Shown: positions 26,172 to 53,191 of the stretch, piece after piece
Layout of the letters: each line of letters begins with the position of its first letter
Position numbering within the stretch: the first letter of the stretch is position 1
From: Pedobacter heparinus DSM 2366
GTDB taxonomy: Bacteria > Bacteroidota > Bacteroidia > Sphingobacteriales > Sphingobacteriaceae
Reading direction: 5' to 3'
NCBI RefSeq assembly: GCF_000023825.1
Contig: NC_013061.1
Location: 2,294,001 to 2,358,000, forward strand
Length of the DNA: 64,000 bases
Translations under genes and position numbers: made by a program
The notes under the pieces: generated by a model
Told to the model about the DNA's origin: nothing
The model's database searches: none
The model's input: the letters and a program-made list of their open reading frames with translations, nothing else

Positions 26172-26813
26172 ATGGGCAAGTACAAAAAGGGCATCCTCGG
26201 CCCCTTCAGAGGAAAGGTTGGCACAACCGTAGGATCTAGCTGGAACGGAATTTTTTACCTGAAAAGTTTACCAGATTTTGGGGACTATGTGCCCAGCACA
26301 GCACAGTTAAATGTGCAGGCCAAAATGGCCTTTGTAACCGGCTTTTTGAAGCCACTTAAACCACTGCTGAACATAGGTTATAAGCTGTTTAACAAGGGCA
26401 TTACGCCGATGAACGCCGCCACTTCTTATCACCTGAAGAATGCGGTTACGGGTACCAGTGCCCTGAACTATGCCATTGATTATACCAAGGTAATGATCAG
26501 TGAAGGCAATTTGCCTGTAGCCGATGATCCTGAGGTGAACGTTACAGTTGCCAACCAGCTGAACTTTAGCTGGGTTGACGATTCGGACCCGGAGAGTACC
26601 AACGATACGGATATGCTTACTGTACTGGCCATTAATCCCACAAAAGGGAATTATACCAAAAAGGTTAATGCTGTACCAAGATCGGCCCAAGCTTATGTGC
26701 TTCCGGTACCAGGTTATAGTGGTGACGAGGTGCAGGTGTATCTGTTTTTTGTGAGTGCTGATGGTAAACAGGTGAGTGATAGTGTGTATGTAGGGGAGTT
26801 TATAGTGCTTTAA
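26172..26813 (+). CDS. DUF6266 family protein, first copy
   Basis: The 213-residue protein begins with the conserved motif GKYKKGILGPFRGKVGTTVG...WNGIFYLKSLP, which marks the DUF6266 family of Bacteroidota. The middle is helical, and the C-terminal ~100 residues are predicted beta strands ending 'DSVYVGEFIVL'. There is no signal peptide. The family's function is unknown; the start resembles short phage- or element-associated structural proteins, but that is a weak impression. A second member (27522-28163) lies 0.7 kb downstream, about 40% identical by eye at the N-terminus. A strong hairpin follows this copy. Confidence 0.75.
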   Translation: MGKYKKGILGPFRGKVGTTVGSSWNGIFYLKSLPDFGDYVPSTAQLNVQAKMAFVTGFLKPLKPLLNIGYKLFNKGITPMNAATSYHLKNAVTGTSALNYAIDYTKVMISEGNLPVADDPEVNVTVANQLNFSWVDDSDPESTNDTDMLTVLAINPTKGNYTKKVNAVPRSAQAYVLPVPGYSGDEVQVYLFFVSADGKQVSDSVYVGEFIVL

Positions 26814-26872: not shown

Positions 26873-27535
26873 ATGAACGAAGAAGAGATAATTAAAGGAT
26901 CAATTTTTCATTTGATGAATTTTATGATCATGGAGCTATTGCGACATGGCTTTTTACTCGCTATGCGAGATGAGTTAAAGGATTTAAAAGGGCTGGTAAG
27001 GGTAGAAGATGAATACTGGCTTGCTGAACCCAGTGAATATGTGTGTATAACAGATGAAATTGAGCTGTTAAGGCAGGTAAAAGATCCGCTGGTTAAGCTG
27101 ATCATGAGCTCTGTTGATAAAATATCCCGATATAAGGATACCTATTTAATGGTAAACAACCTTGACAGTATGGAAATAATATGTAACGATGAATTTAATG
27201 AAGCAGCTGGAAGCATTTATTACGCCAATACTTATGAAATGGATTGTGATGGCAGCTATAATAGTATTTACGTTAATGTGTTAAGTTATTACTGGTGCAT
27301 GGAGCTGATTTTGTTTTATGGGGTAACGCAATTTATGCTGAATAAGGAAGAAGTATATGAAGAGGTAGATAAAAACTATGAGCATTACCATACTACAAAA
27401 GGGTTTGAAACATTAACGGACAACAAAAATGCCTTGCTGTTGCTTGACCTGATGGCTGAATTAAACAAAGACGGGTACTACATTGGCGAATGTGATTTGA
27501 AAACAACTAAAAAAAACGAAGATGGGAAGATATAA
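26873..27535 (+). CDS. Hypothetical acidic protein, 220 residues
   Basis: I do not recognise this soluble, acidic protein, which is rich in tyrosine, asparagine and aspartate (for example 'EAAGSIYYANTYEMDCDGSYNSIYV'). The N-terminal ~60 residues are helical; no membrane segment is long enough to be convincing. It lies between the two DUF6266 genes and overlaps the second by 14 bases, so these two are translationally coupled and may function together. No catalytic motif seen. Confidence 0.6.
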   Translation: MNEEEIIKGSIFHLMNFMIMELLRHGFLLAMRDELKDLKGLVRVEDEYWLAEPSEYVCITDEIELLRQVKDPLVKLIMSSVDKISRYKDTYLMVNNLDSMEIICNDEFNEAAGSIYYANTYEMDCDGSYNSIYVNVLSYYWCMELILFYGVTQFMLNKEEVYEEVDKNYEHYHTTKGFETLTDNKNALLLLDLMAELNKDGYYIGECDLKTTKKNEDGKI

Positions 27536-28163
27536 GAATGGAATAACCGGGCCTGTTAGGGGCAAAATTGGAAACGTGGTGGGGAGCACCTGGCGGGGCA
27601 TAGCTGTGTTAAAAAGCCTGGCAGAACCCAGTACGAAAGCGCCATCAGAAAAACAGCTAAACCAGCGCTTTGTATTTGCAATGGTAAACGCCTGGTTAAA
27701 ACCCCTGAGAGACTTGATATGGATTGGTTTCCAGATTTTCACCGGCACAAAAACGCCTATGAACGGAGCTGTGTCATTATTGCTGAAAGAAGCAGTAACA
27801 GGTAACAGCAGGGAAAACTATGCCATAGATTTTGCAAAAGTAATACTGAGCAGGGGAGAGTTGCTGATATCGCTGATTAAACAGGTACTGGTATTAATAG
27901 ACAGCGTGCTGCAGATTAAGTGGGAAAACCCATCGGCCTCCGTTTTTTGCCAAGCCAATGATAAAGCGACTGTGGTGGTGTACAATAATGCAAAGCAAAA
28001 GTTTGTGATATTTAAGGATGTGGCAAAACGGGCTGATGAACAGGTAGATTTACAGTTGCCTGCTGATTTTGCCGGAGATGCTATACATGCATGGATGCAC
28101 TATGTAAGTATGGAAGGAGATGCGGTGAGTACGAGTGTTTATATCGGTGAATATGTGATATAA
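27522..28163 (+). CDS. DUF6266 family protein, second copy
   Basis: The 213-residue protein opens with GRYKNGITGPVRGKIGNVVG...WRGIAVLKSLAEP, the DUF6266 signature, and closes with 'STSVYIGEYVI', parallel to the first copy's ending. The middle differs considerably, so the duplication is not recent. Its start lies inside the end of the 220-residue gene. It converges on the aminotransferase gene with a six-base gap, marking the edge of the accessory zone. Function unknown. Confidence 0.75.
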   Translation: MGRYKNGITGPVRGKIGNVVGSTWRGIAVLKSLAEPSTKAPSEKQLNQRFVFAMVNAWLKPLRDLIWIGFQIFTGTKTPMNGAVSLLLKEAVTGNSRENYAIDFAKVILSRGELLISLIKQVLVLIDSVLQIKWENPSASVFCQANDKATVVVYNNAKQKFVIFKDVAKRADEQVDLQLPADFAGDAIHAWMHYVSMEGDAVSTSVYIGEYVI

Positions 28164-28169
28164 TATTGG

Positions 28170-29267
28170 TTATAAAATAAAATTATTTAAAGTTTCAACA
28201 ACATAATGGATATCTTCAACAGTATGGGCAAAAGAACAAGGTAAACTCAATGTAGTATTGTGAATTTCTGTAGAAACCGGATAATTTAAATGGTTCATAA
28301 ACTTTAGCGCTTTCTGTTTATGCGGAGCAATAGGATAATGAATTTCTGTTCCGATCCGATTTTCCAGCAAATAAGCCTTTAACCTGTCACGCTCGGGATG
28401 TCTGATGTTAAATATATGATAAACATTACTAAAATCATTATTTACTACTGGCTTTATGAAATTATCACTTAATTCTGAAAGATAAATGGCGGCCAGTTTC
28501 TTCTTATGAAGATTGATCTCATTTAAGTAAGGAAGTTTTATCCTTAAAAACGCGGCCTGTATTTCATCTAATCTTGAATTATAGCCAACAATTTCATTGT
28601 GGTATTTCTTTTCGGAACCGTAATTCCTCAGCTGTCTCAGTTTTTGGTAATGTTTCTCTGACTTGCAGATTAATGCTCCTGCATCGCCTAAGGCGCCTAA
28701 ATTCTTTGTAGGATAGAAGCTAAATGCACCAAAATCTCCGAAAGTTCCCGCAAGTTTTCCCTTATAAGTAGCACCATGTGCCTGGGCACAGTCTTCTATT
28801 AGCTTCAGGTTTTTGTTTTTACAGATCGAAAGTATCGGATCCATTTCACAGCACTGGCCATAGAGATGGACAACCATTATGGCTACTGTTCGTTCAGTGA
28901 CGGCATCTTCAATTTTTTGTGGATCGATGTTATAAGTGTTGATATCGGGCTCAACCAGGACCGGTACCAAACCGCAATGCACAATAGATAAGATTGTAGC
29001 AATGTAAGTATTAGAGGGAACTATAATTTCATCCCCATCTTTAAAGTCGCAGGCCTTTAAGGAAAGGATTAGTGCATCCAGTCCATTGGCTACACCAACA
29101 ACGTATTGTTCGTTATGATAGTCGCCAAATTCTTCTTCAAATTTGGTTACCTCTTTTCCTAGTATATACCAGCCGGCGTCCAGAAAATCGGTAAATTTTT
29201 GTTTAAACGCAGCTTCAAATGGTCTATTGAGCGTTTTTAAATTTTCGTATGGTATTGTAAGGCTCAT
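28170..29267 (-). CDS. DegT/DnrJ/EryC1/StrS-type PLP sugar aminotransferase
   Basis: The 365-residue protein has the typical family features. '[15 protein letters not shown]' is followed by '[14 protein letters not shown]' (cofactor phosphate loop). '[18 protein letters not shown]' and '[11 protein letters not shown]' (the Asp that holds the pyridine nitrogen) come next, then the catalytic lysine in '[18 protein letters not shown]' and '[12 protein letters not shown]'. It resembles the FdtB/QdtB group that makes 3-amino-3,6-dideoxyhexoses from dTDP-3-ketosugars. No cognate ketosugar isomerase or acetyltransferase gene is in the window, so the amino sugar pathway must be completed elsewhere. 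It is last in a minus-strand run behind a glycosyltransferase gene (33-base gap). Confidence 0.88.
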
Positions 29268-30416: not shown

Positions 30417-32633
30417 CTAAGATTTTTTAGATAGTTTTAACGAAGACATGATCACCAGATCAGAGCCTTTATTGTATTCTGGTTTTGTATAAATGTATTT
30501 TTTAAGGTCCGGTAGCCTTGTAAGCAAGGTTTGTATTGCACCCCGGGCTTCTGCACGGGCCATACCCATTCCTATACATTGATGGATACCTGCACCAAAG
30601 GCAAGGTGTCTTTTTGCTGGTCGAGTTAGGGAAAATCTTTCCGGTTCAGTGTAGTGATCAGGATCTGTCATAGCAGATCTTAAATTAAGCATCAACGTAC
30701 TTCCTGCAGGAATTGTTTGTTCTTGTAAAATCACTTCTTGAGTAGCGATTCTGTGAACAGCTGTTATTGGTGTTTGCAGCCTGAGACATTCTTCAATAAA
30801 TCTGCCGATCTGCTTTTCATCATCCATTAACTGATCAGCTAGAGCTGGCTCGGTTAAGGTTATATATATAGCGCTACTGATTAGAGCGCTGGTTGTTGCC
30901 ATTCCGGCTGTCCAAATGATTCTCAACAGACTTGTTGCATCTGACAGGATAAATTCATTATTGATAACCAATTGACGTAATTTTCCCCATAAACAGTCTT
31001 GTTTATGGAGTTCACAGATCAAAAATTCAGTTTCGAAAAATTCCTGCAAACGCTGCCAGTAAAGCATGTTTTGGTAATCTTTTCCGGTAAAATTTAGCAT
31101 TCTCTCAGCATTTTCAGAGGACAGTCCAAAAAAGTTGCACAACACCAAAAGTGACAAAGGGTCTGAATAATCTTTAACCATATCAAAATTGTCCTGCTGA
31201 AAGATCAAATCCAGTAATTGCTGGGCGGTAACGGCTGTAAATTGAGCCAGTTCTGAGATTACTTCCGGCGAAAATAATGGTTGCAGCAAATTTCGGATGA
31301 TTTTATGAGTTTCAGGATCTGCACCCAGAAGAATAGGATCGTAATCTTTTAATATTGAACTGGAAAATATTTGTGGCTGTTTTAAAATATACTCAACCTC
31401 ATTGTAACCCAGAACCAGCCAGGCAGTGTGGGCTGGTAGGAAGTGGACAGCACCATACTTTCTTAAATATTCAAATGAAAGTGGTGATGGATCATTATAT
31501 ATATTAAAGGTTTGTTTAAAGTTTGTAAGTGTAATTATTTCATCGTCAATTAAATAAGATCTTTCAAATTTTATCTTGGTCAGTTGTTTTTGTAAAAGAT
31601 TGTGGTTTGCTATTTCAACTGATTCGGATTGCATGGAGTTGAATACTTTAATTTCAACAGGTTTGCATACTGCATTAAACTGTCTTTCTGAGATCGCTGG
31701 TGGACCAATTTGTAAGAAAGTTTTATAACCATCATTTAAAACTGCTTGTAATGTTTTCGCAAATAGTACAGGCAAACAGACAAGGTTATACCAGTACTCG
31801 CGATCAAGAACAATATTTCCTGGAATCATTTTGCCCAGGGTTGGTGAATAATAGTCGCATTTTAAAGGTTTTGGCTCTATATCTTCATAGTACTTATACA
31901 ATAATTTATGCTGCAACCTGATTCGGGAAGTATGATAAGGAATAAATGTTTTTTCAGCAGCAAAATTAAAGGCCATTCCCTCAACCAAAAAAAATTGTTT
32001 TAATTGGTCAATGTCATCTTTATCACAAGCAATCAGCTGAGCTTGTGGGCTATCTTCATAAATTATTTCTGCCCATACTGGTGATCTTTTGCAAAAATCT
32101 AAAGCTTCATTAAAATTGAGGTTCAGAAATACAAAGGCGTATTGCATCCGCTCAACTTTATAAAGTGTCATGTAGCTTAAGGAGATTTTTAAAGCTTCTT
32201 TAAGTGTAAGCGCCCCTGCTGCATAAGCGGCTGCAGGTTCTCCCATGCTAACCCCCATAACTGCATTTGGATAAATACCATTGCTGTTGTATAAATCCAC
32301 AGTAGCCAATTGTATGGCTGTGATACAAGTAAATTTAGATTCGTCTTCAAAAATATGTGGATTTACCTCACCTTCAAAATAGGATCGTATCTCAGTTCCC
32401 CCATGTTCAGTTAAAATATCATCGCAATTCTGGATTACTCTTCTAAAGATCTTATGCTCTTTATAAAGACTACGGCCAACTGTAGGCCAATTGTCATTAC
32501 GCCCCCCAAAAGTAAACACCAAACGATCTATTTCTTTTTTTTTTATCAGAAAGCTTTTAACTGTATGTGCCCTCCACCAGAAAGCAAAATAAACGCGTTT
32601 TGCAAAATTTATCATTGTATGTTTATTCATCAT
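30417..32633 (-). CDS. Acyltransferase-cytochrome P450 fusion protein
   Basis: This 738-residue protein joins two domains. Residues about 35-330 resemble a PKS/FabD-type acyltransferase: 'VFTFGGRNDNWPTVGRSLY' stands for the usual FPGQG start, GVSMG at 127-131 gives nucleophile Ser129, and IPYHTS gives His234. Residues about 370-738 are a cytochrome P450: I-helix 'IWTAGMATTSALIS', ExxR in 'FIEECLRLQ', and heme loop FGAGIHQC with Cys686, then IGMGMARAEA. The UbiA-like gene ends 16 bases before it. I infer that the acyltransferase domain loads or docks a carrier-bound substrate for oxidation. It lies with prenyltransferase and terpene-cyclase-like genes. No ferredoxin partner is visible nearby. 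Confidence 0.88.
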   Translation of the reverse strand: MMNKHTMINFAKRVYFAFWWRAHTVKSFLIKKKEIDRLVFTFGGRNDNWPTVGRSLYKEHKIFRRVIQNCDDILTEHGGTEIRSYFEGEVNPHIFEDESKFTCITAIQLATVDLYNSNGIYPNAVMGVSMGEPAAAYAAGALTLKEALKISLSYMTLYKVERMQYAFVFLNLNFNEALDFCKRSPVWAEIIYEDSPQAQLIACDKDDIDQLKQFFLVEGMAFNFAAEKTFIPYHTSRIRLQHKLLYKYYEDIEPKPLKCDYYSPTLGKMIPGNIVLDREYWYNLVCLPVLFAKTLQAVLNDGYKTFLQIGPPAISERQFNAVCKPVEIKVFNSMQSESVEIANHNLLQKQLTKIKFERSYLIDDEIITLTNFKQTFNIYNDPSPLSFEYLRKYGAVHFLPAHTAWLVLGYNEVEYILKQPQIFSSSILKDYDPILLGADPETHKIIRNLLQPLFSPEVISELAQFTAVTAQQLLDLIFQQDNFDMVKDYSDPLSLLVLCNFFGLSSENAERMLNFTGKDYQNMLYWQRLQEFFETEFLICELHKQDCLWGKLRQLVINNEFILSDATSLLRIIWTAGMATTSALISSAIYITLTEPALADQLMDDEKQIGRFIEECLRLQTPITAVHRIATQEVILQEQTIPAGSTLMLNLRSAMTDPDHYTEPERFSLTRPAKRHLAFGAGIHQCIGMGMARAEARGAIQTLLTRLPDLKKYIYTKPEYNKGSDLVIMSSLKLSKKS

Positions 32634-32648
32634 GCGAAATGCTCATTG

Positions 32649-33683
32649 TTATTTGCGGGTCAGTTGAAGTATTTTAATACCTATTATGCGTGCATAATCA
32701 TAAATGGCAAGCCATATCAAATAGGGAAATAACAGCATATGTACGATCAATGCAATGAAGTTGAGGTTATCCGTAATGGATGCAAATACCAAAAGAGATA
32801 TGGGAAAAAACATTTGGTAATAATCAGCCATCAGTATCTGGAAAGGACCACTGTTGGGTTTAATTATTAACACTATCTGATTCTTATACGCTGTATACCG
32901 TAAATATAGAAGTACGAGGTATAGCAATAAAGCTATATATGGGGCTAAAAGTGCCAGTTGAGTTAATAATATACTTAAAGCGATCAATTCTAAAGTGATG
33001 AGTAACATGGATTGCTTTTTGAAATCCTGGGGTTCAATTTTGCTCGCATAAGTATTCAGATTTACCTTAATGTCGTTCACTCTGTCTGCGAACTGATGCC
33101 AGAGAATTCCTCTAAGGCCGTAACAGAATGCCCAGACGCCAACACTTGCAAACCAGACCCAGTTCATTTCCTGATGTGTAATATAACTCACACTGGATAC
33201 CATTAATAAACTGGGGAATAAGTGAGATCCGCATCCGTCTGCAAAAACGCCCAATATGCCCCTATTCTTTAGTCTGACGGGTCTGATAGAGTAGAGGCTA
33301 AATACGATCCAGGATAGGAGGTAGAGCAGGCAGGATAAAAGATCAGGATAAAGAAAATAACCGAATATAGTTCCAAAGAATATGCAGGCTACTGGAATTG
33401 TCCATCTCAATTTTTCAGGAATTTGCTGGATCCTGTTGGGTTTTCCACTGGCCAGATCTTCTTCAAGATCTGTAATGTCATTGATAACGCTGACATAGAT
33501 GGCGCCTACTACCAGGGAGGCTAACAAAAAAACCAGCCATAATGATACGCGGTATAGGGGGACAGCTGACATCAATACTGTGGCATAGCCAATTGCCAGG
33601 AGTGGTGGGAGTTTATGAGCCCACCATTCCGCAGATCTTATAACTTTAAATATTTTCATTGGATAATAAGGCGTATGAGGCAA
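32649..33683 (-). CDS. UbiA-family membrane prenyltransferase
   Basis: The 344-residue integral membrane protein has about eight or nine helices and both aspartate-rich sites of the UbiA family: NDITDLEED at 68-76 and DRVND at 200-204, which bind the prenyl diphosphate through magnesium. Such enzymes prenylate aromatic or other acceptors, and some cyclise terpenes. ATG at 33659 (MKIFKVIRSAEWW) is a likelier start than 33683 because it aligns with usual N-termini; either way the start overlaps the end of the preceding gene, implying translational coupling with the toroid protein. Acceptor unknown. Confidence 0.85.
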   Translation of the reverse strand: MPHTPYYPMKIFKVIRSAEWWAHKLPPLLAIGYATVLMSAVPLYRVSLWLVFLLASLVVGAIYVSVINDITDLEEDLASGKPNRIQQIPEKLRWTIPVACIFFGTIFGYFLYPDLLSCLLYLLSWIVFSLYSIRPVRLKNRGILGVFADGCGSHLFPSLLMVSSVSYITHQEMNWVWFASVGVWAFCYGLRGILWHQFADRVNDIKVNLNTYASKIEPQDFKKQSMLLITLELIALSILLTQLALLAPYIALLLYLVLLYLRYTAYKNQIVLIIKPNSGPFQILMADYYQMFFPISLLVFASITDNLNFIALIVHMLLFPYLIWLAIYDYARIIGIKILQLTRK

Positions 33684-34695
33684 GTGCCTCCAGACAAAAA
33701 CCTGTAGTCAGTTCTTCTGAACCAAAACAACTTAGCTTTTTTGGTCCGCCATAATAAACAGCCCAACGTGCCCAACTGCCATAAGATTGCTGGTTATCCA
33801 GCAGGTAATTTACTGCTTTCTTTAAAACGTTAGCACTGTAATTTAAATTGATCAGTGTAATAATGCCCAATGCCGTATTAAGGACATTATTTCCCATAGA
33901 GCCGTTTTCCTGCACGGTTGCTAAAATCCGATCGATCATTGGTTGTTTGGCTGGTTCCAATGCTGATATTCCATTTTTGTAATTTCTGGAAAAAAAGTAG
34001 TAAATGGTAAACGGGTTACGGTACCAAAGATCGCAGTTTGCTTCTTTATTTTGTTCGATTATATCCAACATATAATTAATTACGGGTTGTGTACTTTCAT
34101 TTAAACCGAGATAAAAAAGCACATTTGCATTCACCGCAGCATCTATATCGTTACGGTTACACTCAAATTTACTCCAAAAAAAGAAGGACTGTATCGGATT
34201 TTTAAATTCTCTTAAAATCAGCAGCCAATAATCTTTGTTCCAGATGGTATTTGGCCGCAGGGTATACCAGGTATAAAAAAGGCCAGATTTATTACGGTTG
34301 CAGCGCAGAATTTCTTTATTATGTGGATAATCTCTCTTTAAAGCCTGCAAAACTTTTGAAGCACATGCGGTATTGTCCACATCAGCCGGACAGACTTTGA
34401 ACAATGGTGCCCAGGTAGTGAAATTATTCCAGGTGCCTGCTCTCATGGACTGGAATTGCAGAAAGGTTGCAGAAAGCTCCAGAATATCCTTTACTTTTGG
34501 TAAATGCGATAAATTTAATAAAGAAAAACAAATGAGAGAGGTAGAAAACACATTGCTATAAGGTATTGTATCCTTTAAATGATCCTCATGACCAAGATAA
34601 AGGCAGAACTCGCCATTAGGGAATTGATGCTGATGAAGATAATCAACACCGTTGAGTATTGCCTGTGTTATAGTTTCTGGCTGAAGCGTGTCCAT
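33646..34695 (-). CDS. Terpene cyclase-like/squalene-cyclase-repeat (alpha-alpha toroid) protein
   Basis: The 349-residue protein has prenyltransferase/squalene oxidase-type repeats: 'GVDYLHQHQFPNGEFCLY', 'ATFLQFQSMRAGTWNNFT', 'AVNYLLDNQQSYGSWARWAVYYG'. At 105-109 it carries DVDNT in the position where class II terpene cyclases have DxDDT, the general acid; the third aspartate is replaced by asparagine. Full squalene-hopene cyclases are ~630 residues with two barrels, so this looks like a single-barrel form. It is coupled to the UbiA-like gene. It may cyclise a prenyl chain or be a non-catalytic relative; the Asp-to-Asn change leaves this open. Confidence 0.75.
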   Translation of the reverse strand: MDTLQPETITQAILNGVDYLHQHQFPNGEFCLYLGHEDHLKDTIPYSNVFSTSLICFSLLNLSHLPKVKDILELSATFLQFQSMRAGTWNNFTTWAPLFKVCPADVDNTACASKVLQALKRDYPHNKEILRCNRNKSGLFYTWYTLRPNTIWNKDYWLLILREFKNPIQSFFFWSKFECNRNDIDAAVNANVLFYLGLNESTQPVINYMLDIIEQNKEANCDLWYRNPFTIYYFFSRNYKNGISALEPAKQPMIDRILATVQENGSMGNNVLNTALGIITLINLNYSANVLKKAVNYLLDNQQSYGSWARWAVYYGGPKKLSCFGSEELTTGFCLEALASYALLSNENI

Positions 34696-34701
34696 TTGAT
34701 T

Positions 34702-35868
34702 TTATTTATTTGCAAGAAGCTCAACAATTAGCTTTGCGAACTCTGTTTCAGGTGATTTTGGGACGTTTTCTGCAACATGTTTAGCCCCGTTTTTTCCGAT
34801 CTCTTCCCATTCTTCTCTTTTATGCCAGGCACGTTCCATTGCCTCCCCGAATGATTCTTCATTGGCGTGACCGATAAAAGCGGTAACACCTTCTTCTACC
34901 AGTTCTGCATTCCCGCCTGCATTGGATATGATTACGGGCCTGCCAGCAGACATGGCCTCGACCATAGATAGAGGTAAACCTTCACTTCTGGAAGGAAGAA
35001 CAAGGGCATGATAATCTTCCCACATCGCTTCAATATCCTCAATCTGTCCCAGAAAATCGACGTTGGTGACATTTAACAGTTTAGCCATATCTTTTAAAGC
35101 TGCCTCGTCTGTACCTTTTCCAATAAAGGATACTTTTACAGGACGATCTCTCCATTTTTGCTCGGAAAGTATACGGATCAATAGATCCTGTCCTTTATCC
35201 AGCAAAAAAAGCCTGCCTAAACAAGCTAATTTGTATGGTTCTTTAGATTTAGGAAATGGTACAATGTTTCCTGATAGCTTTACCGGATTAAAAATGACCT
35301 GCCCGTTGGGTAGTCTTTTACCAAATTGTTCTTCTGTTAACCGCAGGTTATGGTGTGATACAAAGAAACATTTTTCCGCTTTTTCCAGTGCTTTGAGCAT
35401 AAAGGCACGATCATCCTTGTGGGGCCAGTAAAAATCTACGGCCTTTTGGGAAATGACCACATAGGGTATTTTAAGGAGGGAACATTGGTAAGCAAGTTTC
35501 AGGCCGTCAAAATTTATTCCCTGTGAGATGATCACCAGTGCTGGTTTGGTGTCCTGCATGATCTTGATGAAAGCGCTAAAATCCTCACCCTGATCTGAGG
35601 TCAATTTCAGTTTCAGCGCCACCTGATTGACTAATTTTAAGCTCTTTTTATAAACTCTTTTTGCTATTGTACCTTTTGGGAAAATGTCGAGCAGATTAAC
35701 GCCCCTTTCAGCAAGTCTGATAAATTCCGGATGAGCCCTGTTGATATAATATTTTATTACTGTAATATGAAAACCAGACTCTTGTAACAGCGGAACACTT
35801 CTTCCCCATAATTCTTCGCTGCCACCCCAGTCCTCTGCGCAGGTACTGGCTATAACTATCCTCTTCAT
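34702..35868 (-). CDS. Family 4 (GT-B fold) glycosyltransferase
   Basis: The 388-residue protein begins 'RIVIASTCAEDWGGSEELWGR', the glycine-rich N-terminal loop of GT4 enzymes. It contains the nucleotide-binding C-terminal motif 'LPSRSEGLPLSMVEAMSAGRPVI', with the EX7E pair. There are no membrane helices. It could glycosylate the natural product or extend a glycan. Its start overlaps the end of the ABC exporter gene by four bases (ATGA type), which ties it to export of a glycosylated compound. The toroid gene begins six bases downstream of its stop. Confidence 0.9.
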   Translation of the reverse strand: MKRIVIASTCAEDWGGSEELWGRSVPLLQESGFHITVIKYYINRAHPEFIRLAERGVNLLDIFPKGTIAKRVYKKSLKLVNQVALKLKLTSDQGEDFSAFIKIMQDTKPALVIISQGINFDGLKLAYQCSLLKIPYVVISQKAVDFYWPHKDDRAFMLKALEKAEKCFFVSHHNLRLTEEQFGKRLPNGQVIFNPVKLSGNIVPFPKSKEPYKLACLGRLFLLDKGQDLLIRILSEQKWRDRPVKVSFIGKGTDEAALKDMAKLLNVTNVDFLGQIEDIEAMWEDYHALVLPSRSEGLPLSMVEAMSAGRPVIISNAGGNAELVEEGVTAFIGHANEESFGEAMERAWHKREEWEEIGKNGAKHVAENVPKSPETEFAKLIVELLANK

Positions 35869-37682
35869 TGTTGTTTCTGTGCTAAATCTTTATTGAACAA
35901 ATTATAATAGGCTCCTTTCAAGTTGATTAATTCCTGGTGGGTTCCTGATTCTGATATAGTTCCATTGGATAGGAAATAGATATAGTCTGCATGTTTTACT
36001 GCAGATTGCCTGTGACTGATGATGAGCGCAGAACGAGTCCCGATACGTTCTCTGAAAGAATCAAAAAGTTCCTTTTCTGCTGTCGCATCTAAGGCACTGG
36101 TGGCTTCATCTAAGATAATAAAGCGTGACTTGCTATAAAATGACCTGGCAATGGCCAGTTTCTGCCATTGACCTATGCTTACTTCGTGACCATCTTCAAA
36201 TATTCGACCCATAATCGTATCATACCTGGCAGGAAATGTATCGATAAACGAATCTGCACCTGAATTTTTTGCTGCTTCGATAATTTCTATTCTGTCTCTT
36301 TTGCCATCAATATCTCCAAACCTGATGTTATCTGCAGCGCTTACGTTGTATTTTCCAAAATCCTGAAAGACCGCACAAATTTGTTTTTGATATTCTTTAA
36401 TTGAATATTTCCTGATGTCTGTGCCACTTAAACTAATTGTTCCTGACGTTGGATCATATAATCTACATAACAGCTTAATCAGGGTAGATTTACCTGCTCC
36501 ATTCATTCCTACAACAGCTATAATTTTTCCGGAAGGCATTTTGATATTGATGTCTGTGAGTGTCGGCTTTTCTGCGTGAGGGTAGATGAAGTTTAAATCT
36601 TTTATTTCGAGATCGATGGATGCATCATTTGGTATTGGCAATGGATGCTGTGCTTGCACTAAATTGCTTTTTAAATCAAATAGCTCAAATACGCTCTTGA
36701 CAAAGATATTATTCTGATAGAGGGTAGATATACCAGAGGACAAGGTCTGTATAACATTGAAAGATTGTGGAAAAGCAACTAAAAATAAAGTAATATCCCC
36801 CACGCTGGTATTTCCCCGGACACTTCCAATAGCGATATAAGCAATACACGAGAAAAAACCAAGTGTAGCAATTGCAGAGGTTACCAATTCCCGGTATGTA
36901 CGTTCTTTACTTAGTTTGAGCTTTCCTGACAATAATAACAATCTGATTTCACTATACATTTTTCTTAAATACTCGCCCAAACCGAAGCTTCTGACTTCTT
37001 TTGCGTGAACATCGCTGGTTAATAATGTACTCAAATAGTTTGTTTTTCTTTCTAGCGCCGTCTGGGTTATCCGAAGCACATTTTGGCTGTCTGCAAAGAT
37101 AATCCTAACCCATAAAGTTGGGAGTACAAATAAGGTCAGGATTGGAAAGAGGCGCCAGTCTATAGAAACCAGTATAGAGCCTATGATGATCAGGTTGATA
37201 AAGTTTTTAGTGATGTCAACAATAGTAAAGACGATCAAATTAGGCCTGTCGCCTCCCATATCCCGCGCGCGCTTTAAAATGTCAAAGTATTCAGGACTTT
37301 CATAGAAGGACAAATCAAGATTAATGGCGCTTTCATGGATTTTATTGTCAACGTATTCAGCTACTTTTCCCGATTGCTTTTCAGTTATATAACCTAGTAT
37401 GGCTTTTGCAGCGGCACAAAGAACGGCAGCAAGGGTAGCGAAAATGATGAGATTAATGACGCGGTCTTCATATTGAACCAGGTTGGCCTCTTTTTTAGCA
37501 AGGGTGTCAATCAATAGCTTCAGTAAATAAAGAGAGGCAAAGAAAAGTGCGCTTTCCACCATTATGAAAATTATGGAAATCGTAGTCCATAATTTAGTTG
37601 CAGACCATATTAACCTTATTATTCTTAATAGATTTAGATTCGTACTTAGTTTATGAGCTTTTGTTGCAAATGATTTAATCAT
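35865..37682 (-). CDS. ABC exporter, fused membrane and ATPase domains (MsbA-like)
   Basis: The 605-residue half-transporter has a six-helix membrane domain (about 25-330) and an ATPase domain with Walker A GMNGAGKST, signature VSIGQWQKLAIARS (SIGQ replacing the usual SGGQ) and Walker B FIILDEATSALD followed by 'ALIISHRQSAV'. It works as a homodimer in the inner membrane, exporting lipids, peptides or natural products. Its location in the same minus-strand run as the P450, prenyltransferase and glycosyltransferase genes suggests it carries the locus product or a lipid-linked precursor. Confidence 0.9.
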   Translation of the reverse strand: MIKSFATKAHKLSTNLNLLRIIRLIWSATKLWTTISIIFIMVESALFFASLYLLKLLIDTLAKKEANLVQYEDRVINLIIFATLAAVLCAAAKAILGYITEKQSGKVAEYVDNKIHESAINLDLSFYESPEYFDILKRARDMGGDRPNLIVFTIVDITKNFINLIIIGSILVSIDWRLFPILTLFVLPTLWVRIIFADSQNVLRITQTALERKTNYLSTLLTSDVHAKEVRSFGLGEYLRKMYSEIRLLLLSGKLKLSKERTYRELVTSAIATLGFFSCIAYIAIGSVRGNTSVGDITLFLVAFPQSFNVIQTLSSGISTLYQNNIFVKSVFELFDLKSNLVQAQHPLPIPNDASIDLEIKDLNFIYPHAEKPTLTDINIKMPSGKIIAVVGMNGAGKSTLIKLLCRLYDPTSGTISLSGTDIRKYSIKEYQKQICAVFQDFGKYNVSAADNIRFGDIDGKRDRIEIIEAAKNSGADSFIDTFPARYDTIMGRIFEDGHEVSIGQWQKLAIARSFYSKSRFIILDEATSALDATAEKELFDSFRERIGTRSALIISHRQSAVKHADYIYFLSNGTISESGTHQELINLKGAYYNLFNKDLAQKQQ

Positions 37683-37772: not shown

Positions 37773-38864
37773 TTAAAATGATGCTTCGGTAGGTTGGCTT
37801 TTTTTCTTTTTATTAAAAAAATCTATGAATGTGTATAAAACCAACGAAAATGCTTTATTAAAAGGCTTTTCTATAAATTTGTTCAGGAACCAGGAAACAA
37901 GAATGGCCGATAAAAGAATGCCGAATAGGAGCAGGTCAGCCTGTATTTTATCGCTAAAATACCAGTAAAAACATAAAAAATAAATGTGAAACAAATAAAA
38001 TGGATAAGCAATTTCTCCCAGAAATGTAAAAAATGCATTTGATTTTATATTGAGCTTCTTAACGGAAATCAGCAAAAAAATAAGATAAATCAATATAACC
38101 ATAAGCGTAATCACCCAGACATTTATTGTATTAGGTTCTTTACTTAGTGCCTGTAATTGAATAGCCAAATGGTTTGCTCCAAACAATGCACAAATAAAGT
38201 TTGCGAACAACAGACTATACAATTTCCTGGCTGAGCTGTATTGGACCGAAATTAAGTAAAACAGTATACCAGCAACAAATGGGGTGACTATGATATGGAC
38301 AGGAAAAGCGGGTAGGAAAAGATTGGCCAGACTAAAAAGGGTCAGCCCAGCAATAACAATCAATAGCTTATTCCAAAGCTTAAAGTAAATGATCAACGCT
38401 ATAAAAATATAGAAAAACAGTTCGATAACCAGTGTGTGAAAAACTGGGTTCATTAATGGGTACCCAAAAATCATTGGCACCATTGTTAAATTTAATAATA
38501 ATGCCTTCACAGAGGTAAATGATAAATAGCTGTGTGCTTCAATTATTCGTGGCAAGATAAAAGCTGCCAAACAGCTTACCCAAAACAAAGGGTACAATCT
38601 GGAGAGCCTGCTTACGACGAAATCTTTTAAATTTCTTTTTACTGAAGTCATGGTTACAACATACCCACTAACCATAAAAAAGACCAGCAAGGCAACACTG
38701 CCATAACGTGAAATAAAGTTGTATTTATGATTTTCCGGTACAATCTGGTATATCAAATTAAATGTATCGGTGTAATGCGCGAAATAAACAGCTAAAACTG
38801 CCAAAAACCTTAGTAGATCCAAGGCCCCGGATCTGCCTGGCTTGGAACGGGACTTTACCATCAT
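37773..38864 (-). CDS. OafA-type membrane O-acyltransferase (acyltransferase family 3)
   Basis: The 363-residue protein has about ten membrane helices and the family start 'LDLLRFLAVLAVYFAHYTDTF', with the catalytic histidine in FAHY. 'GSVALLVFFMVSGYVVTMT' follows and 'EIAYPFYLFHIYFLCFYWYF' comes near the end. Such enzymes move acetyl or longer acyl groups onto surface glycans, lipids or antibiotics. It lacks the C-terminal SGNH domain of larger members. It stands between the ABC exporter (90-base gap) and a GT2 gene, so the acceptor may be the polysaccharide or the natural product. Confidence 0.88.
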   Translation of the reverse strand: MMVKSRSKPGRSGALDLLRFLAVLAVYFAHYTDTFNLIYQIVPENHKYNFISRYGSVALLVFFMVSGYVVTMTSVKRNLKDFVVSRLSRLYPLFWVSCLAAFILPRIIEAHSYLSFTSVKALLLNLTMVPMIFGYPLMNPVFHTLVIELFFYIFIALIIYFKLWNKLLIVIAGLTLFSLANLFLPAFPVHIIVTPFVAGILFYLISVQYSSARKLYSLLFANFICALFGANHLAIQLQALSKEPNTINVWVITLMVILIYLIFLLISVKKLNIKSNAFFTFLGEIAYPFYLFHIYFLCFYWYFSDKIQADLLLFGILLSAILVSWFLNKFIEKPFNKAFSLVLYTFIDFFNKKKKSQPTEASF

Positions 38865-41068: not shown

Positions 41069-42331
41069 TTAAAAGTTGTCTTGTTGCAGTTGTACTTTAA
41101 ACTTTGGCCTAACCGAGCCAACCCAGTCGCCATACCATGCCGTATTCTCCCTAAAGTCCTCCACTTCAAAAGATAAGCATTCTTCAAAATCAAACAATGG
41201 ACTGCTGGTGTTTTTAACAAATGACAGGTCTATGGAATAGGACCCATTATTCAGAAAGTCGCCAGGTATAGTACATTTCCCTTTAATTACCCCCTTGGTA
41301 TATTGCTTTGAAGTTGAGGCGACATTAAAAACACATTCTCCCATTACGGTGTTTAATATAATGTTTACACCCAGATCCATTTCTTCCGCTGGTAAATACC
41401 AAAATTCGAATTCGATGAGCAGAGGTGTTCTGATGTCTATGATATTGCTGGAATCGGGATATTGTGGCAACATTTCGACACGTTTGATACGGACACTTTC
41501 ATTTCCTGGCGCAGTGTCAGGGTCATCGTATATCCTGCTTAGATATAATGTTTGCTCACGCTTTAAATAATTGCCTATTACATCTTGCATATTTCCCATA
41601 TCAATTAGCCGCCCTTTTTCAAGGTAGATTGCTTTGGTACATAAGCTTTTTAGCGCTTGCGAATTATGGCTTACAAAAAGTACAGTTTTGCCTTCTTCTG
41701 TCGACACCTGTTTCATTTTACCCAGGCATTTTTTCTGAAATTCAGCATCACCCACAGCTAATACCTCATCAACGATGAGGATTTCGGGATCCAAATGCGC
41801 AGCTATGGCAAATGCAAGCCGAACGTACATCCCGCTGGAGTAGCGTTTTACAGGAGTATCCAGAAATCGCTCAATACCGGAAAAAGCTACAATTTCGTCA
41901 TATTTAGCTATGATCTCTTTTTTGTGCATACCCAAAATTTGCCCATTTAAAAAGATGTTCTCGCGGCCTGTCAACTCTAAATGGAAGCCTGTGCCAACTT
42001 CCAATAAACTTGCAATGCGGCCCTTGCCTTTAATGGTGCCGGTTGTTGGTAGCGTAATGCGCGACAGTACTTTCAACAGGGTTGATTTTCCAGCTCCGTT
42101 TTTGCCAACAAAGCCGACCACGTCGCCCTTCATTATCTCAAAATTAATGTCTTTAAGCGCCCATAGTTCTTTTCCTTTGTCGATATGGAGGTCGTTCGTT
42201 GCTGTATTATTGCCAATTGAAAATGTTTTCTTCCAGAGGTTTTGGAGATCTTCTTTAAATGATCCGGATCCTATTACGCCCAGTCGGTAATATTTTGATA
42301 TGTTTTCTGCTTTTAGCATCAGGTTACTCAT
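41069..42331 (-). CDS. wzt: Polysaccharide ABC transporter ATPase with C-terminal glycan-binding domain (Wzt-like)
   Basis: The 420-residue protein has an ATPase domain with Walker A GFVGKNGAGKST, 'LTGRENIFLNGQILGM', the signature 'RYSSGMYVRLAFA' and Walker B ILIVDEVLAVGD, all typical of the O-antigen/teichoic-acid export type. From about residue 275 a beta-sandwich Wzt_C-like domain follows ('RIKRVEMLPQYPDSSNIIDI...FEFWYLP'), which in known systems recognises the finished glycan terminus. Together with the permease immediately upstream (10-base gap) it exports lipid-linked polysaccharide across the inner membrane. Confidence 0.92.
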   Translation of the reverse strand: MSNLMLKAENISKYYRLGVIGSGSFKEDLQNLWKKTFSIGNNTATNDLHIDKGKELWALKDINFEIMKGDVVGFVGKNGAGKSTLLKVLSRITLPTTGTIKGKGRIASLLEVGTGFHLELTGRENIFLNGQILGMHKKEIIAKYDEIVAFSGIERFLDTPVKRYSSGMYVRLAFAIAAHLDPEILIVDEVLAVGDAEFQKKCLGKMKQVSTEEGKTVLFVSHNSQALKSLCTKAIYLEKGRLIDMGNMQDVIGNYLKREQTLYLSRIYDDPDTAPGNESVRIKRVEMLPQYPDSSNIIDIRTPLLIEFEFWYLPAEEMDLGVNIILNTVMGECVFNVASTSKQYTKGVIKGKCTIPGDFLNNGSYSIDLSFVKNTSSPLFDFEECLSFEVEDFRENTAWYGDWVGSVRPKFKVQLQQDNF

Positions 42332-42341
42332 TCTTCATCGC

Positions 42342-43208
42342 TTAAATAATGTCCATTACCTCTGTTTCGCGTCTTTTAAATAAGACCAGACCCAGTATTA
42401 ATAAAATAGTAGTATTAACAGTAGCCAACAACAAATACTGATATTGTATTGTTCCTACATTGAAAAACATGGCCCTGAATGTTTCTATAATAGGAGTTAA
42501 GGGGTTTAACCAAAATAGAAACTGATATTTTAATGGCACAATGGAACTGGGAAAAACCACTGGGGTAACAAACATACCTAAGCGGAGTATATATTGAAAA
42601 AAAGTATCTACATCTCTGTATCGTGCTGTAAAAACTGAAATCAATAGACCAGTACCTAATGCAAACGCAGCGGTTAATACAATTAGAAATGGAATAAGAA
42701 GCAATGATGTTGTGAGCTGAAACTGATGATACACGATGTGGTAATACAAAAATATAATGATAAACAATAAAAATTGTATGGATAGTCTTACTGATTGAGT
42801 GATAATGTTGCTTACTGGCATAATTAACCTGGGGAAGTATACTTTACTAAAAATTTCTGCATTGGTGATGAACGTATACATAGTGCCAGAGATGTTATCG
42901 AAAAAGAAAGTCCAGATGATGGTACCAGACAAATAGAATAGTATTTTAGGAACACCATCAGTTGATACCTTAGCAAAACTGCCGAACACAATCAAATAAA
43001 TTAAAGTAGTTAAGAGAGGCTGCAAAAACATCCATATGGGGCCAATTATGGTTTGCTGGTAACTGGCAATTAAATCACGGCGCACAAAACGCATAATTAA
43101 TCCTCTATAGGCATAAAGGTCGCGCAGGCCTAACTTAAACCAGGCTGGAGTACCATTTATTTCCCATTGCCAATCTGCAGTTGTATCTTCGTTTTTGTTA
43201 TTATTCAT
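42342..43208 (-). CDS. wzm: Polysaccharide ABC transporter permease (Wzm-like)
   Basis: The 288-residue protein is an ABC-2 type permease with six membrane helices after an N-terminal amphipathic segment ('LGLRDLYAYRGLIMRFVRRDLIASYQQTI'). It carries the conserved 'GPIWMFLQPLLTTLIYLIVF' and the ending 'LNPLTPIIETFRAMFF', both diagnostic of O-antigen/capsule permeases. It pairs with the downstream ATPase. The gene begins 33 bases after the deacetylase stop, so methyltransferase, deacetylase, permease and ATPase form one operon. Confidence 0.93.
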   Translation of the reverse strand: MNNNKNEDTTADWQWEINGTPAWFKLGLRDLYAYRGLIMRFVRRDLIASYQQTIIGPIWMFLQPLLTTLIYLIVFGSFAKVSTDGVPKILFYLSGTIIWTFFFDNISGTMYTFITNAEIFSKVYFPRLIMPVSNIITQSVRLSIQFLLFIIIFLYYHIVYHQFQLTTSLLLIPFLIVLTAAFALGTGLLISVFTARYRDVDTFFQYILRLGMFVTPVVFPSSIVPLKYQFLFWLNPLTPIIETFRAMFFNVGTIQYQYLLLATVNTTILLILGLVLFKRRETEVMDII

Positions 43209-46081: not shown

Positions 46082-47263
46082 ATGATTATAGCTTTCTGGA
46101 TTTGCCTCTTCATTATCATTTACACTTTTATTGGATATGGTCTTGTTTTGTTCTTTCTGGTTAAAATTAAAAGAATATTCACAAAACCACAGGTTTTTAT
46201 ACCTGTACCAGATGATCTTCCTAATGTTACCTTGTTAATAGCCGCCTATAATGAGGAGGACATTATTGCCGACAAGGTAAATAATACATTGGAACTGAAT
46301 TATCCAAAAGACAGATTACAGATTGTCTTTATTACGGACGGTTCCAGTGACCGCACGGTTGAACGGTTAAGAAATAGGGAGGGCATTACTTTGTTGCATG
46401 AAGATACACGCGCTGGAAAAATGGCAGCCATTAAACGGGCCATACCTTTTATCAATGGAGACATCACTGTATTTACAGATGCAAATACCTTTTTAAATAA
46501 AGATGCCATCCTTGAGTTGGTAAAACACTATCAGAACAATAAAGTTGGTGCAGTGGCTGGCGAAAAAAGAATTTTGGTGGAAGATAAAGCCGATGCCAGT
46601 TCGGCAGGAGAAGGCTTTTACTGGAAATACGAATCAGCACTTAAAAAGTGGGACTATGAGCTATATTCTAATGTAGGAGCTGCCGGAGAATTATTTAGCA
46701 TCAGAACAGCATTGTATCAGCCTGTTGAATCGGATACCATTATTGACGACCATATGATTGCCATGCGAATTGCTGAAAAAGGTTATGTTATTGCCTACGA
46801 ACCCAATGCTTATGCCATGGAAACAGCCTCGGCAAATACCAAAGAAGAATTAAAAAGAAAAATAAGAATAGCAGCGGGAGGCATTCAGTCCATCTTAAGA
46901 CTAAAGAAAGCAGCAAATCCGCTTTATTATCCTGTGCTCACATTTCAATATATCAGTCACAGGGTTTTAAGATGGACGGTTACCCCAATTTTGCTTGTAG
47001 TCACTTTTCTGTTGAATGGTTTAATTGTGTTAAATGGTGACAGAGGGATTTATCTGGTTATCTTTGGTGCCCAGGTTGTGTTTTACGTCCTGGGCCTGAC
47101 GGGGATGATCTTTGAAAGAAGGAACATTAGAATCAAAAGTTTCTTCATCCCATATTATTTTTGTGTAATGAATTATGCAGTAATTGCTGGAGCCATCAGA
47201 TATTTTAAAAGACAACAAAGCGCGGCATGGGAAAAATCTGAAAGAAAAACAGCTCAAACCTGA
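46082..47263 (+). CDS. Membrane-bound processive-type family 2 glycosyltransferase
   Basis: The 393-residue protein has one N-terminal membrane helix, a cytoplasmic GT-A domain ('VTLLIAAYNEEDIIADKV', 'VFITDGSSDRT', 'ITVFTDANTFL', and 'DDHMIAMRIAEKGYVI'), and about three C-terminal helices, the layout of cellulose synthase/IcaA-like enzymes. The QxxRW motif of processive synthases appears altered: 'SHRVLRW' is present without a clear Q two residues before. It may polymerise or extend a membrane-linked glycan. Its end overlaps the end of the convergent phosphopantetheinyl transferase gene by 10 bases. Confidence 0.88.
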   Translation: MIIAFWICLFIIIYTFIGYGLVLFFLVKIKRIFTKPQVFIPVPDDLPNVTLLIAAYNEEDIIADKVNNTLELNYPKDRLQIVFITDGSSDRTVERLRNREGITLLHEDTRAGKMAAIKRAIPFINGDITVFTDANTFLNKDAILELVKHYQNNKVGAVAGEKRILVEDKADASSAGEGFYWKYESALKKWDYELYSNVGAAGELFSIRTALYQPVESDTIIDDHMIAMRIAEKGYVIAYEPNAYAMETASANTKEELKRKIRIAAGGIQSILRLKKAANPLYYPVLTFQYISHRVLRWTVTPILLVVTFLLNGLIVLNGDRGIYLVIFGAQVVFYVLGLTGMIFERRNIRIKSFFIPYYFCVMNYAVIAGAIRYFKRQQSAAWEKSERKTAQT

Positions 47264-47946
47264 TATTCCCAATAATTAAACCGATCTGTTTCTGCGGAAA
47301 AGGCCAGACTGACCACTATCCGGTTGTCGTCATTGAAGCTTACAATGTTAAAATCAGTATTGTTCCTGTGGACTTTATTTATTAAAGAGGGAATGTGTTC
47401 AAATGTATTATTTATGCCTTCTCCTGTAGCTTTAATCAATGCTTCTTTCCTGGTCCAGAGCAAATAAAAATGTTGTAAGGGATTATCACTTTCAGTTACG
47501 AATTCAATTTCCTCTTTATTAAAACAATTGTTCAAAACGTCAGTATACTTAAAAACGGTATTTACATATTCAACATCTATTCCAATATCGGCACTGCTAA
47601 CAGCGATAAAAACGTATTTGGAAGTATGTGCAATGTTAAAATTTATACCATGTACCATTGGTTTACCGTTAGCTGCTTTATGAAATTTCAATTCTTCAGG
47701 TTTAATACGTAGAAAATCTGCTACTATTAGCTTTGAGAGGTGTTTGCCAACCACATAGTTTTTTTTATCAGCTGCAAGTCTGAACCTTAAAGCCTTTTGC
47801 TGTTCATCTAAAGTCAGCAAGAAATCCCGATTAATTTTGTCAAAGTACAATTCAGCATCTATTTTAAAAATATGGCTCTCCCTCTCCAAAAATAGGGCAT
47901 GACCATGGTAACTATGCCAATCCAGATGTTTTATAGATGGATTCAC
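47254..47946 (-). CDS. 4'-phosphopantetheinyl transferase (Sfp-type)
   Basis: The 230-residue enzyme has the Sfp signature: 'FNIAHTSKYVFIAVS', 'IGIDVEYVN' with D124 and E126 as magnesium ligands, and 'WTRKEALIKATGEGI' with W164, K167 and E168. It transfers the phosphopantetheine arm from coenzyme A to carrier-domain serines. It starts seven bases after the NRPS stop codon, so it is the last gene of the three-gene biosynthetic operon and supplies the activation needed by the three carrier domains upstream. Confidence 0.93.
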   Translation of the reverse strand: MNPSIKHLDWHSYHGHALFLERESHIFKIDAELYFDKINRDFLLTLDEQQKALRFRLAADKKNYVVGKHLSKLIVADFLRIKPEELKFHKAANGKPMVHGINFNIAHTSKYVFIAVSSADIGIDVEYVNTVFKYTDVLNNCFNKEEIEFVTESDNPLQHFYLLWTRKEALIKATGEGINNTFEHIPSLINKVHRNNTDFNIVSFNDDNRIVVSLAFSAETDRFNYWEYQV

Positions 47947-53176: not shown

Positions 53177-53191
53177 TTGATTGCTGTTAAT

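What the first reader, a model, noticed from the sequence alone, without database searches (positions are those of the whole stretch)
30417..32633. Acyltransferase-P450 fusion protein
One reading frame joins an AT domain with intact Ser129/His234 to a complete cytochrome P450 with Cys686. P450s are usually separate proteins, or fused to reductases. The fusion suggests oxidation of a substrate presented by, or transferred from, an acyl carrier, and may be the signature enzyme of this pathway.
Basis: partly seen in the sequence, partly recalled or inferred. Interest (0 to 1): 0.75.

Follow-up and report, generated by a model that had tools for sequence, protein, structure and literature searches.

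The report
Acyltransferase–P450 fusion beside terpene cyclase
A bacterium carries one gene that welds an acyl-transferring domain to an oxygen-inserting P450 domain; it sits next to terpene-type genes and probably decorates a terpene product, a rare but real enzyme layout whose job can be tested directly.

Summary
Window 30417-32633 (-) is one 738-codon frame: a PKS-type acyltransferase (Pfam 39-314; Ser129/His234) followed by a P450 (about 376-735; Cys686). It is no assembly join: a full-length relative (30-32% identity, same order, same three residues) lies in another class of the same phylum (G202). The fusion is rare in what I could search.

The interpretation changes. In both genomes the gene lies in a tight gene run with a UbiA-family membrane protein, a GT4 and a GT2 glycosyltransferase and a class II terpene-cyclase beta domain whose model matches drimenol synthase (Z 30.5). 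In two other genomes a related P450 is fused to that cyclase domain instead. G202 shows no NRPS condensation domain, no type I PKS marker and no AT domain besides FabD and this one, so no assembly line is needed. Both fused ATs lack the arginine that holds malonyl groups. The gene was not found in 9 of 11 related operons (three of these cut by contig ends): an accessory, not the signature enzyme.

Most likely: the P450 oxidises the cyclised terpenoid and the AT esterifies it with a simple acyl group, as separate enzymes do in fungal drimane pathways. Substrate, order and donor are inferred. New variant of a known kind.

The parts
30417..32633 (-). AT-P450 fusion, 738 aa: N-terminal PKS-type acyltransferase, linker, C-terminal cytochrome P450
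   Evidence: ORF; Pfam; PDB sequence matches; full-length relative
31686..32525 (-). acyltransferase domain, about residues 37-316; Ser129 and His234 kept, carboxylate-binding Arg column = Tyr154
30420..31508 (-). cytochrome P450 domain, about residues 376-738; ExxR 615-618, Cys686, I-helix AGMATT (576-581)
32649..33683 (-). UbiA-family membrane prenyltransferase-like protein (in-frame ATG at 33659, where relatives begin); NDxxDxxxD and DxxxD motifs kept
   Evidence: UbiA, 48.7 bits vs cut-off 34.2; invariant N68 D69 D72 D76 D200 D204 in 4 of 4
33646..34695 (-). class II terpene-cyclase beta-domain protein, 349 aa, DVDNT motif (D105, D107) and Y225
   Evidence: sequence match to drimenol synthase; model; Z 30.5 to 9m7f
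34702..35868 (-). GT4 glycosyltransferase, present in 11 of 11 related operons
35865..37682 (-). ABC exporter (membrane plus ATPase in one chain), present in 8 of 11 related operons
37773..38864 (-). membrane O-acyltransferase (Acyl_transf_3), also beside the exporter in L016 and L017
29301..30275 (-). GT2 glycosyltransferase, present in 9 of 11 related operons
28170..29267 (-). DegT/DnrJ/EryC1-type sugar aminotransferase, last gene of the run

Best explanation
The gene is a true two-domain tailoring enzyme of a terpenoid pathway. The UbiA-family protein and the class II cyclase make a cyclised, probably head-group-linked prenyl product; GT4 and GT2 glycosylate it and the ABC protein exports it. 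The P450 half hydroxylates the cyclised terpenoid, and the AT half, which has lost the malonyl-binding arginine, moves a simple acyl group (acetyl or longer, from CoA or the fatty-acid ACP) by a Ser129/His234 ping-pong mechanism onto a hydroxyl, plausibly the one the P450 made. Shown: the fusion, its conservation in one distant relative, the retained catalytic residues, the missing arginine, the operon company, the cyclase fold, and the P450-cyclase fusion in relatives. Inferred: substrate, order of steps, acyl donor, product.
For: Same architecture in G202, about 30% identical, with Ser129, His234, Cys686 conserved. Both genes sit with TC, UbiA, GT4 and GT2 in tight runs. A related P450 is fused to a TC domain in G1083 and G915, next gene UbiA; that domain in G1083 matches the TC profile at hhalign E 3.2e-16. 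In G068 a TC-like gene adjoins two P450 genes. TC model: best PDB matches are drimenol synthase (Z 30.5, rmsd 2.6, 292 aligned) and MstE (Z 29.3). TC residues D105, D107, Y225 align with D331, D333, Y427 of AsDMS, essential there (PMC12365925, passages). Arg column lost in 2 of 2 AT-P450s, kept in 7 of 7 reference ATs. G202 shows no NRPS C domain, no type I PKS marker and no AT besides FabD and this one. Functional parallel: calidoustene C is made by a cyclase-hydrolase, two P450s and an acyltransferase (PMC11035983, passages); astellolides need P450s, an ester-forming NRPS and the acetyltransferase AstG (PMC5024094, passages).
Against: Only two fusion sequences were found, so conservation rests on one pair. 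FabD-fold ATs usually deliver to carrier proteins; small-molecule acceptors are unusual (recalled). The AT site is odd beyond the arginine (GGRN for PGQG, Val before Ser129), so it might be inactive; the AT half is less conserved than the P450 half (26.8% vs 36.2%). In 9 of 11 related operons the gene was not found, so the pathway does not need it. The tree does not firmly join the P450s of the two fusion types: they fell in one group of six rows (92/93, with G903 and G068) in the 15-row tree, and that group was gone when two long rows were added; one clade of the four is not rejected (p-AU 0.106). Related P450s without cyclase neighbours exist (G375, G903, G904). The TC has DVDN, not DxDD. 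UbiA may itself be a cyclase or use a non-terpenoid acceptor. No product is known.
Confidence: 0.4

Rival explanations
1. One reading: the AT docks or unloads an acyl carrier (fatty-acid ACP, or the PKS in this window) and the P450 oxidises that acyl chain before it is passed to the product.
For: AT domains act on carrier-bound acyl groups by nature; one of the solved P450s closest in sequence is the biotin-pathway P450 3ejb, which acts on acyl-ACP (recalled). The AT has lost the malonyl arginine, fitting a fatty acyl. G202 still has a fatty-acid FabD.
Against: The gene runs in both genomes leave no room for a carrier gene, and none shows in the 680-base gap before the G202 run, where the ORFs of 40 codons or more read as a GntR-like regulator and a short opposite-strand frame (label by eye). 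Related P450s are fused or adjacent to a terpene cyclase instead of an AT. A chain buried on Ser129 could not reach a heme in another domain without transfer (inference).
Confidence: 0.25
2. The AT half is a non-catalytic scaffold or docking module, and only the P450 is a working enzyme.
For: GGRN replaces PGQG, Val precedes the serine and Tyr154 replaces Arg; the AT half is less conserved than the P450 half (26.8% vs 36.2%); P450-TC relatives manage without an AT.
Against: Ser129, His234, the GxSxGE and PYH motifs and IGP are kept at about 27% identity of the AT half, which drift alone would not be expected to preserve.
Confidence: 0.15
3. A trans-acting AT that serves the NRPS/PKS at 47954-59722, with an attached P450 that oxidises the carrier-bound polyketide.
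For: Same window; NRPS and phosphopantetheinyl transferase genes also lie close to the GT4-UbiA operon in L021 and L022.
Against: The PKS has its own AT with the arginine, and it is the only type I PKS marker match in the own genome; the fusion lacks the arginine; G202 has the fusion without an NRPS C domain, PKS marker or PKS AT; L021 and L022 show no AT-P450 in the DNA held.
Confidence: 0.06
4. Two genes joined by a sequencing or assembly error.
For: The architecture is rare.
Against: An independent genome of another class has the same full-length fusion at about 30% identity; the window frame is uninterrupted and the window's genome is a single contig.
Confidence: 0.01

Closest known systems
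HAD-terpene-cyclase-beta drimenol synthases (AsDMS) with separate P450s and acyltransferases, e.g. calidoustene and astellolide pathways (fungi) and the cav cluster (Streptomyces clavuligerus)
   Same: Class II beta-domain cyclase with the same catalytic Asp/Tyr set; P450 tailoring; acyl tailoring in the fungal cases
   Different: No HAD domain on the cyclase; a UbiA-family protein and glycosyltransferases are present; P450 and a PKS-type AT are one chain, whereas the passages describe separate P450s and acyl-transferring enzymes
MstE-type meroterpenoid cyclase
   Same: Single-domain class II cyclase, Z 29.3 to the TC model
   Different: 16% identity; acceptor and product unknown here; partnership of MstE with a UbiA prenyltransferase is recalled, not tested
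Type I PKS acyltransferase domains and FabD (PF00698)
   Same: Pfam match, GxSxGE with Ser129, His234
   Different: No malonyl-binding Arg, GGRN for PGQG; attached to a P450, not to KS or ACP
Bacterial P450s of the CYP107, BioI and PksS kind
   Same: Alignment over the whole P450 half, ExxR, heme Cys
   Different: N-terminal AT; I-helix lacks the usual acid (A579; 5 of 15 aligned rows are non-acidic there)
P450-TC fusion proteins of G1083 and G915 (found here)
   Same: P450 of similar type, beside a UbiA gene
   Different: Cyclase domain fused at the C-terminus instead of an AT at the N-terminus; I-helix acid kept

Membership tests
PF00698 acyltransferase family | Profile match above the curated cut-off | tested here: met
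   87.1 bits vs 32.7; relative 80.5 bits
PF00698 acyltransferase family | Catalytic Ser in GxSxG and catalytic His | tested here: met
   S129 and H234 aligned with FabD and PKS ATs
Malonyl/methylmalonyl-specific acyltransferase (FabD, extender ATs) | Arg that binds the free carboxylate (role recalled) | tested here: not met
   Tyr154 here, Ser in G202; Arg in 7 of 7 references
Cytochrome P450 (PF00067) | Profile match, ExxR, heme-ligand Cys in FxxGxHxC | tested here: met
   78 bits vs 22.8; E615/R618/C686
P450-derived glycosyltransferase activators (TIGR04515) | Score above the curated cut-off; these proteins lack the heme Cys (recalled) | tested here: not met
   101.7 bits vs cut-off 343; Cys686 present
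Class II terpene cyclase beta domain (neighbour gene) | Fold and DxD general acid with Tyr partner | tested here: met
   Z 30.5 to 9m7f; D105, D107 (in a weak 3-6 bit stretch) and Y225 align with D331, D333, Y427
Class II terpene cyclase beta domain (neighbour gene) | Cyclisation of a prenyl substrate | not testable with these tools
   needs enzyme assay
UbiA prenyltransferase family (neighbour gene) | PF01040 match and two Asp-rich motifs | tested here: met
   48.7 bits vs 34.2; N68 D69 D72 D76 and D200 D204 invariant in 4 of 4
Trans-AT of an assembly line | Serves AT-less type I PKS modules of the same cell | tested here: not met
   The only type I PKS marker match in the own genome is the window PKS, which has its own AT; G202 has none
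Bifunctional terpenoid hydroxylase-acyltransferase | Both activities on one terpenoid | not testable with these tools
   needs purified protein and substrate

The most novel reading that the evidence does not exclude
A PKS-type AT domain, freed from assembly lines and stripped of its malonyl-binding arginine, has been welded to a P450 to give one enzyme that hydroxylates a class II-cyclised terpenoid and then esterifies it: a bacterial, single-chain counterpart of the separate P450 and acyltransferase steps of fungal drimane ester pathways, within an undescribed UbiA/cyclase/glycosyltransferase pathway of Bacteroidota.
Probability: 0.3. Interest if true: 0.65.

Novelty: new variant of a known kind. 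Interest (0 to 1): 0.45.

Why it matters
It would show a PKS-type AT fold working as a small-molecule O-acyltransferase coupled to a P450, and it flags a Bacteroidota terpenoid-glycoside pathway that I did not find described (GT4-UbiA-class II cyclase, with variable decoration genes). The P450-cyclase and AT-P450 fusions together name the partners, so the substrate might be made by co-expression.

Tried and rejected
Genome-contig scan with the two-row AT-P450 alignment found no relative, but it used only two short peptide patterns from the less conserved AT half, so it is a weak negative. The same in viral contigs found none. The second genome scan used the UbiA pair and found 8 operons, none with an AT-P450 in the DNA held (up to 10 kb each side).

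Single-sequence structure prediction of the fusion failed (mean pLDDT 33). So the relative placement of the domains is unknown.

Considered and dropped: TIGR04515 glycosyltransferase activator (heme Cys present, score far under cut-off); trans-AT for the window PKS; remnant of a lost AT-P450 in related operons (tblastn at E 0.1 finds none in L016-L023). G375 is a counter-example: a related stand-alone P450 with no window-like cyclase, UbiA or AT nearby; G903 and G904 likewise. Those neighbour checks were blastp against window proteins, which also missed the TC-like gene of G068 (seen by eye, then hhalign), so a diverged cyclase could be overlooked. G310 has a distant TC-like gene beside a radical-SAM-like gene, without P450 or UbiA by the same check (that label is read from the sequence).

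Papers: no hit for six ways of writing 'AT-P450'; searches listed nothing that describes such a fusion in the titles and abstract starts shown. The library holds open-licence PMC papers only.

Full report
Observation. The minus strand of 30417-32633 is one open frame of 738 codons. Pfam places Acyl_transf_1 at 39-314 (87.1 bits, cut-off 32.7) and p450 at 569-706 (78 bits, cut-off 22.8). P450s of known structure align from about 376 to 735 and type I PKS acyltransferases from about 37 to 315. Positions 129, 234 and 686 are Ser, His and Cys.

Not an artefact. G202, in a different class of the same phylum, has a 748-residue protein with the same order, AT at 40-312 and P450 at 545-707, aligned to residues 23-711. 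Ser129, His234 and Cys686 are invariant. Identity is 221 of 728 aligned residues in all: 75 of 280 in the AT, 9 of 59 in the linker and 130 of 359 in the P450. A chance join in two lineages with both sets of catalytic residues kept is not credible.

Rarity. Matches at each call's cut-off: 2 of 395 phylum genomes (own and G202), 1 of 301 family genomes (own), 3 of 395 class genomes (own plus two that align only in the P450), 1 of 128 genomes of G202's order (itself), 2 of 185 of its class (itself and a lone P450). Among 99 near relatives 7 match, only the own one over the full length. These samples overlap. No plasmid record of 72,556 covers 80% of the query at one place. The collection scans were narrow.

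Surroundings in the window. The run on the minus strand is ABC exporter (37682-35865), GT4, TC, UbiA, AT-P450, GT2, DegT (to 28170); gaps are between an overlap of 14 and 141 bases, 15 between UbiA and the fusion. The 349-aa TC gene has no Pfam match at E 0.001, only weak squalene-cyclase ones, but its profile finds drimenol synthase (E 1.2e-12) and AstC in the PDB (also 31). An AlphaFold model from 7 sequences (pLDDT 78.7, pTM 0.86) matches drimenol synthase 9m7f at Z 30.5, rmsd 2.6, 292 aligned, and MstE at Z 29.3 (Foldseek); other alpha-alpha toroids (cellobiose epimerases) follow at Z about 21-22. D105, D107 and Y225 align with D331, D333 and Y427 of AsDMS (the first two in a weak stretch of 3-6 bits; numbering set by the single DxDTT331-335 motif, which puts the aligned Arg-Tyr-Tyr at 425-427). 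Variants D331A, D331N, D333N and Y427F lost all activity there (PMC12365925, passages; D333N also PMC9128629, passages). D105, D107 and Y225 are invariant in 7 of 7 and in 4 of 4 sequences. The UbiA relative keeps NDxxDxxxD and DxxxD.

Relatives of the operon. Starting from UbiA, 8 loci were found: Pedobacter Leaf194, Leaf176, jejuensis, quisquiliarum and fastidiosus, two MAGs and Hymenobacter latericoloratus. With the window, G202 and G260 this gives 11 GT4-UbiA operons. A TC gene is seen in 9 of 11; in the other two (L020, L021) the UbiA side ends at a contig edge. The ABC exporter is seen in 8 and the GT2 in 9. AT-P450 is found in 2 of 11 (L019, L020 and L021 are cut by contig ends). Other decoration genes: a Core-2/I-branching-type enzyme (L019, L021), a methyltransferase (L020), a sulfotransferase-like protein (below Pfam's cut-off, G202). 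So the fusion looks like one of several alternative decorations.

The P450 goes with the cyclase. In G1083 and G915 the best P450 relatives outside the fusion pair are proteins of 716 and 717 residues: P450, then a TC-type domain, next gene UbiA. In G068 a TC-like gene (hhalign E 1.8e-06, probability 89.7%) adjoins two P450 genes. Against this, G375 has a related P450 without cyclase neighbours, and so do G903 and G904, as far as blastp against window proteins can tell. P450s of this kind are scarce in the class: 5 of 149 genomes match at 1e-15, the own one included, so repeated adjacency is notable. The tree pairs the two AT-P450s (91/82; 92/80). Their grouping with the P450-TCs had 92/93 support in a set of six that also held G903 and G068, and was gone when two long rows were added; one clade of the four is not rejected (p-AU 0.106).

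AT chemistry. Aligned with the own FabD, the window PKS AT and five PKS ATs, the Arg column is Tyr154 in the fusion and Ser in G202, against Arg in 7 of 7. PGQG is GGRN here and NGRS in G202; the Gln is kept in 4 of 7 references and is Met in 3. By established AT enzymology (recalled) loss of this Arg points to non-carboxylated acyl groups. The own genome shows three matches to the FabD model: FabD, the PKS AT and this one. G202 shows two AT domains, one over the whole of a 295-residue frame (FabD-like) and this one, no condensation domain and no type I PKS marker (the own genome has one, the window PKS). So the fusion works in G202 without a modular assembly line. Type II or III PKS genes were not searched.

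P450 chemistry. ExxR and the heme Cys are kept. The I-helix acid position is Ala579 here and Thr in G202; 10 of 15 aligned P450s have Glu there and 5 do not, these two included (read from the alignment). This does not preclude activity (recalled).

Mechanism. The best fit is hydroxylation of a class II-cyclised, UbiA-derived terpenoid by the P450 and acyl transfer by the AT. Fungal drimane pathways use the same logic with separate proteins: cyclase-hydrolase, P450s DrtC/DrtD and acyltransferase DrtE for calidoustene C (introduction of PMC11035983, passages); P450s AstB/F/J, ester-forming NRPS AstA and AstG for O-acetylation in astellolides (PMC5024094, passages). A bacterial P450, CavA, hydroxylates drimenol. 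Substrate, donor and order remain inferred; confidence 0.4. That the gene belongs to the TC-UbiA pathway I put at about 0.75.

Novelty. Both halves belong to known families; their union, and the UbiA-cyclase-GT operon around it, I did not find described (open-licence papers, listings only). New variant of a known kind.

Noticed in passing
window 47954-59722 (-): Two-gene NRPS/PKS: AMP-binding, carrier, KS, AT, class III aminotransferase (two carrier stretches in all), then C-A-MT-carrier-TE; this layout recalls beta-amino-fatty-acid lipopeptides (recalled). A 4'-phosphopantetheinyl transferase gene follows at 47254-47946.
   Followed up: partly
L021 2-5878 and L022 1-3577: NRPS and phosphopantetheinyl transferase homologues lie next to (L021) or two genes away from (L022) the ABC-GT4-UbiA operon in two Pedobacter species, so NRPS and terpenoid operon may act together.
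   Followed up: partly
window 26172-26813 and 27522-28163 (+): Two 213-aa ORFs with alike starts (MGxYKxGIxGPxRGKxG), apparently paralogues, flank an unlike 220-aa ORF.
   Followed up: no
L014 3327-4199 (-) and L049 4810-5739 (-): Proteins of about 300 aa without any Pfam match near Wzt-type transporters in the P450-cyclase clusters.
   Followed up: partly
L033 1803-2762 (+): Distant TC-like protein next to a protein whose start reads like a radical SAM peptide-modifying enzyme: the cyclase-type toroid in a possible RiPP setting.
   Followed up: no
window 41069-43208 (-), L014 4882-6941, L015 2451-4558, L049 5925-8020: Wzm/Wzt polysaccharide exporter pairs recur near the P450-cyclase genes, hinting that the product is attached to or exported with a glycan. 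None was seen near the G202 operon.
   Followed up: partly
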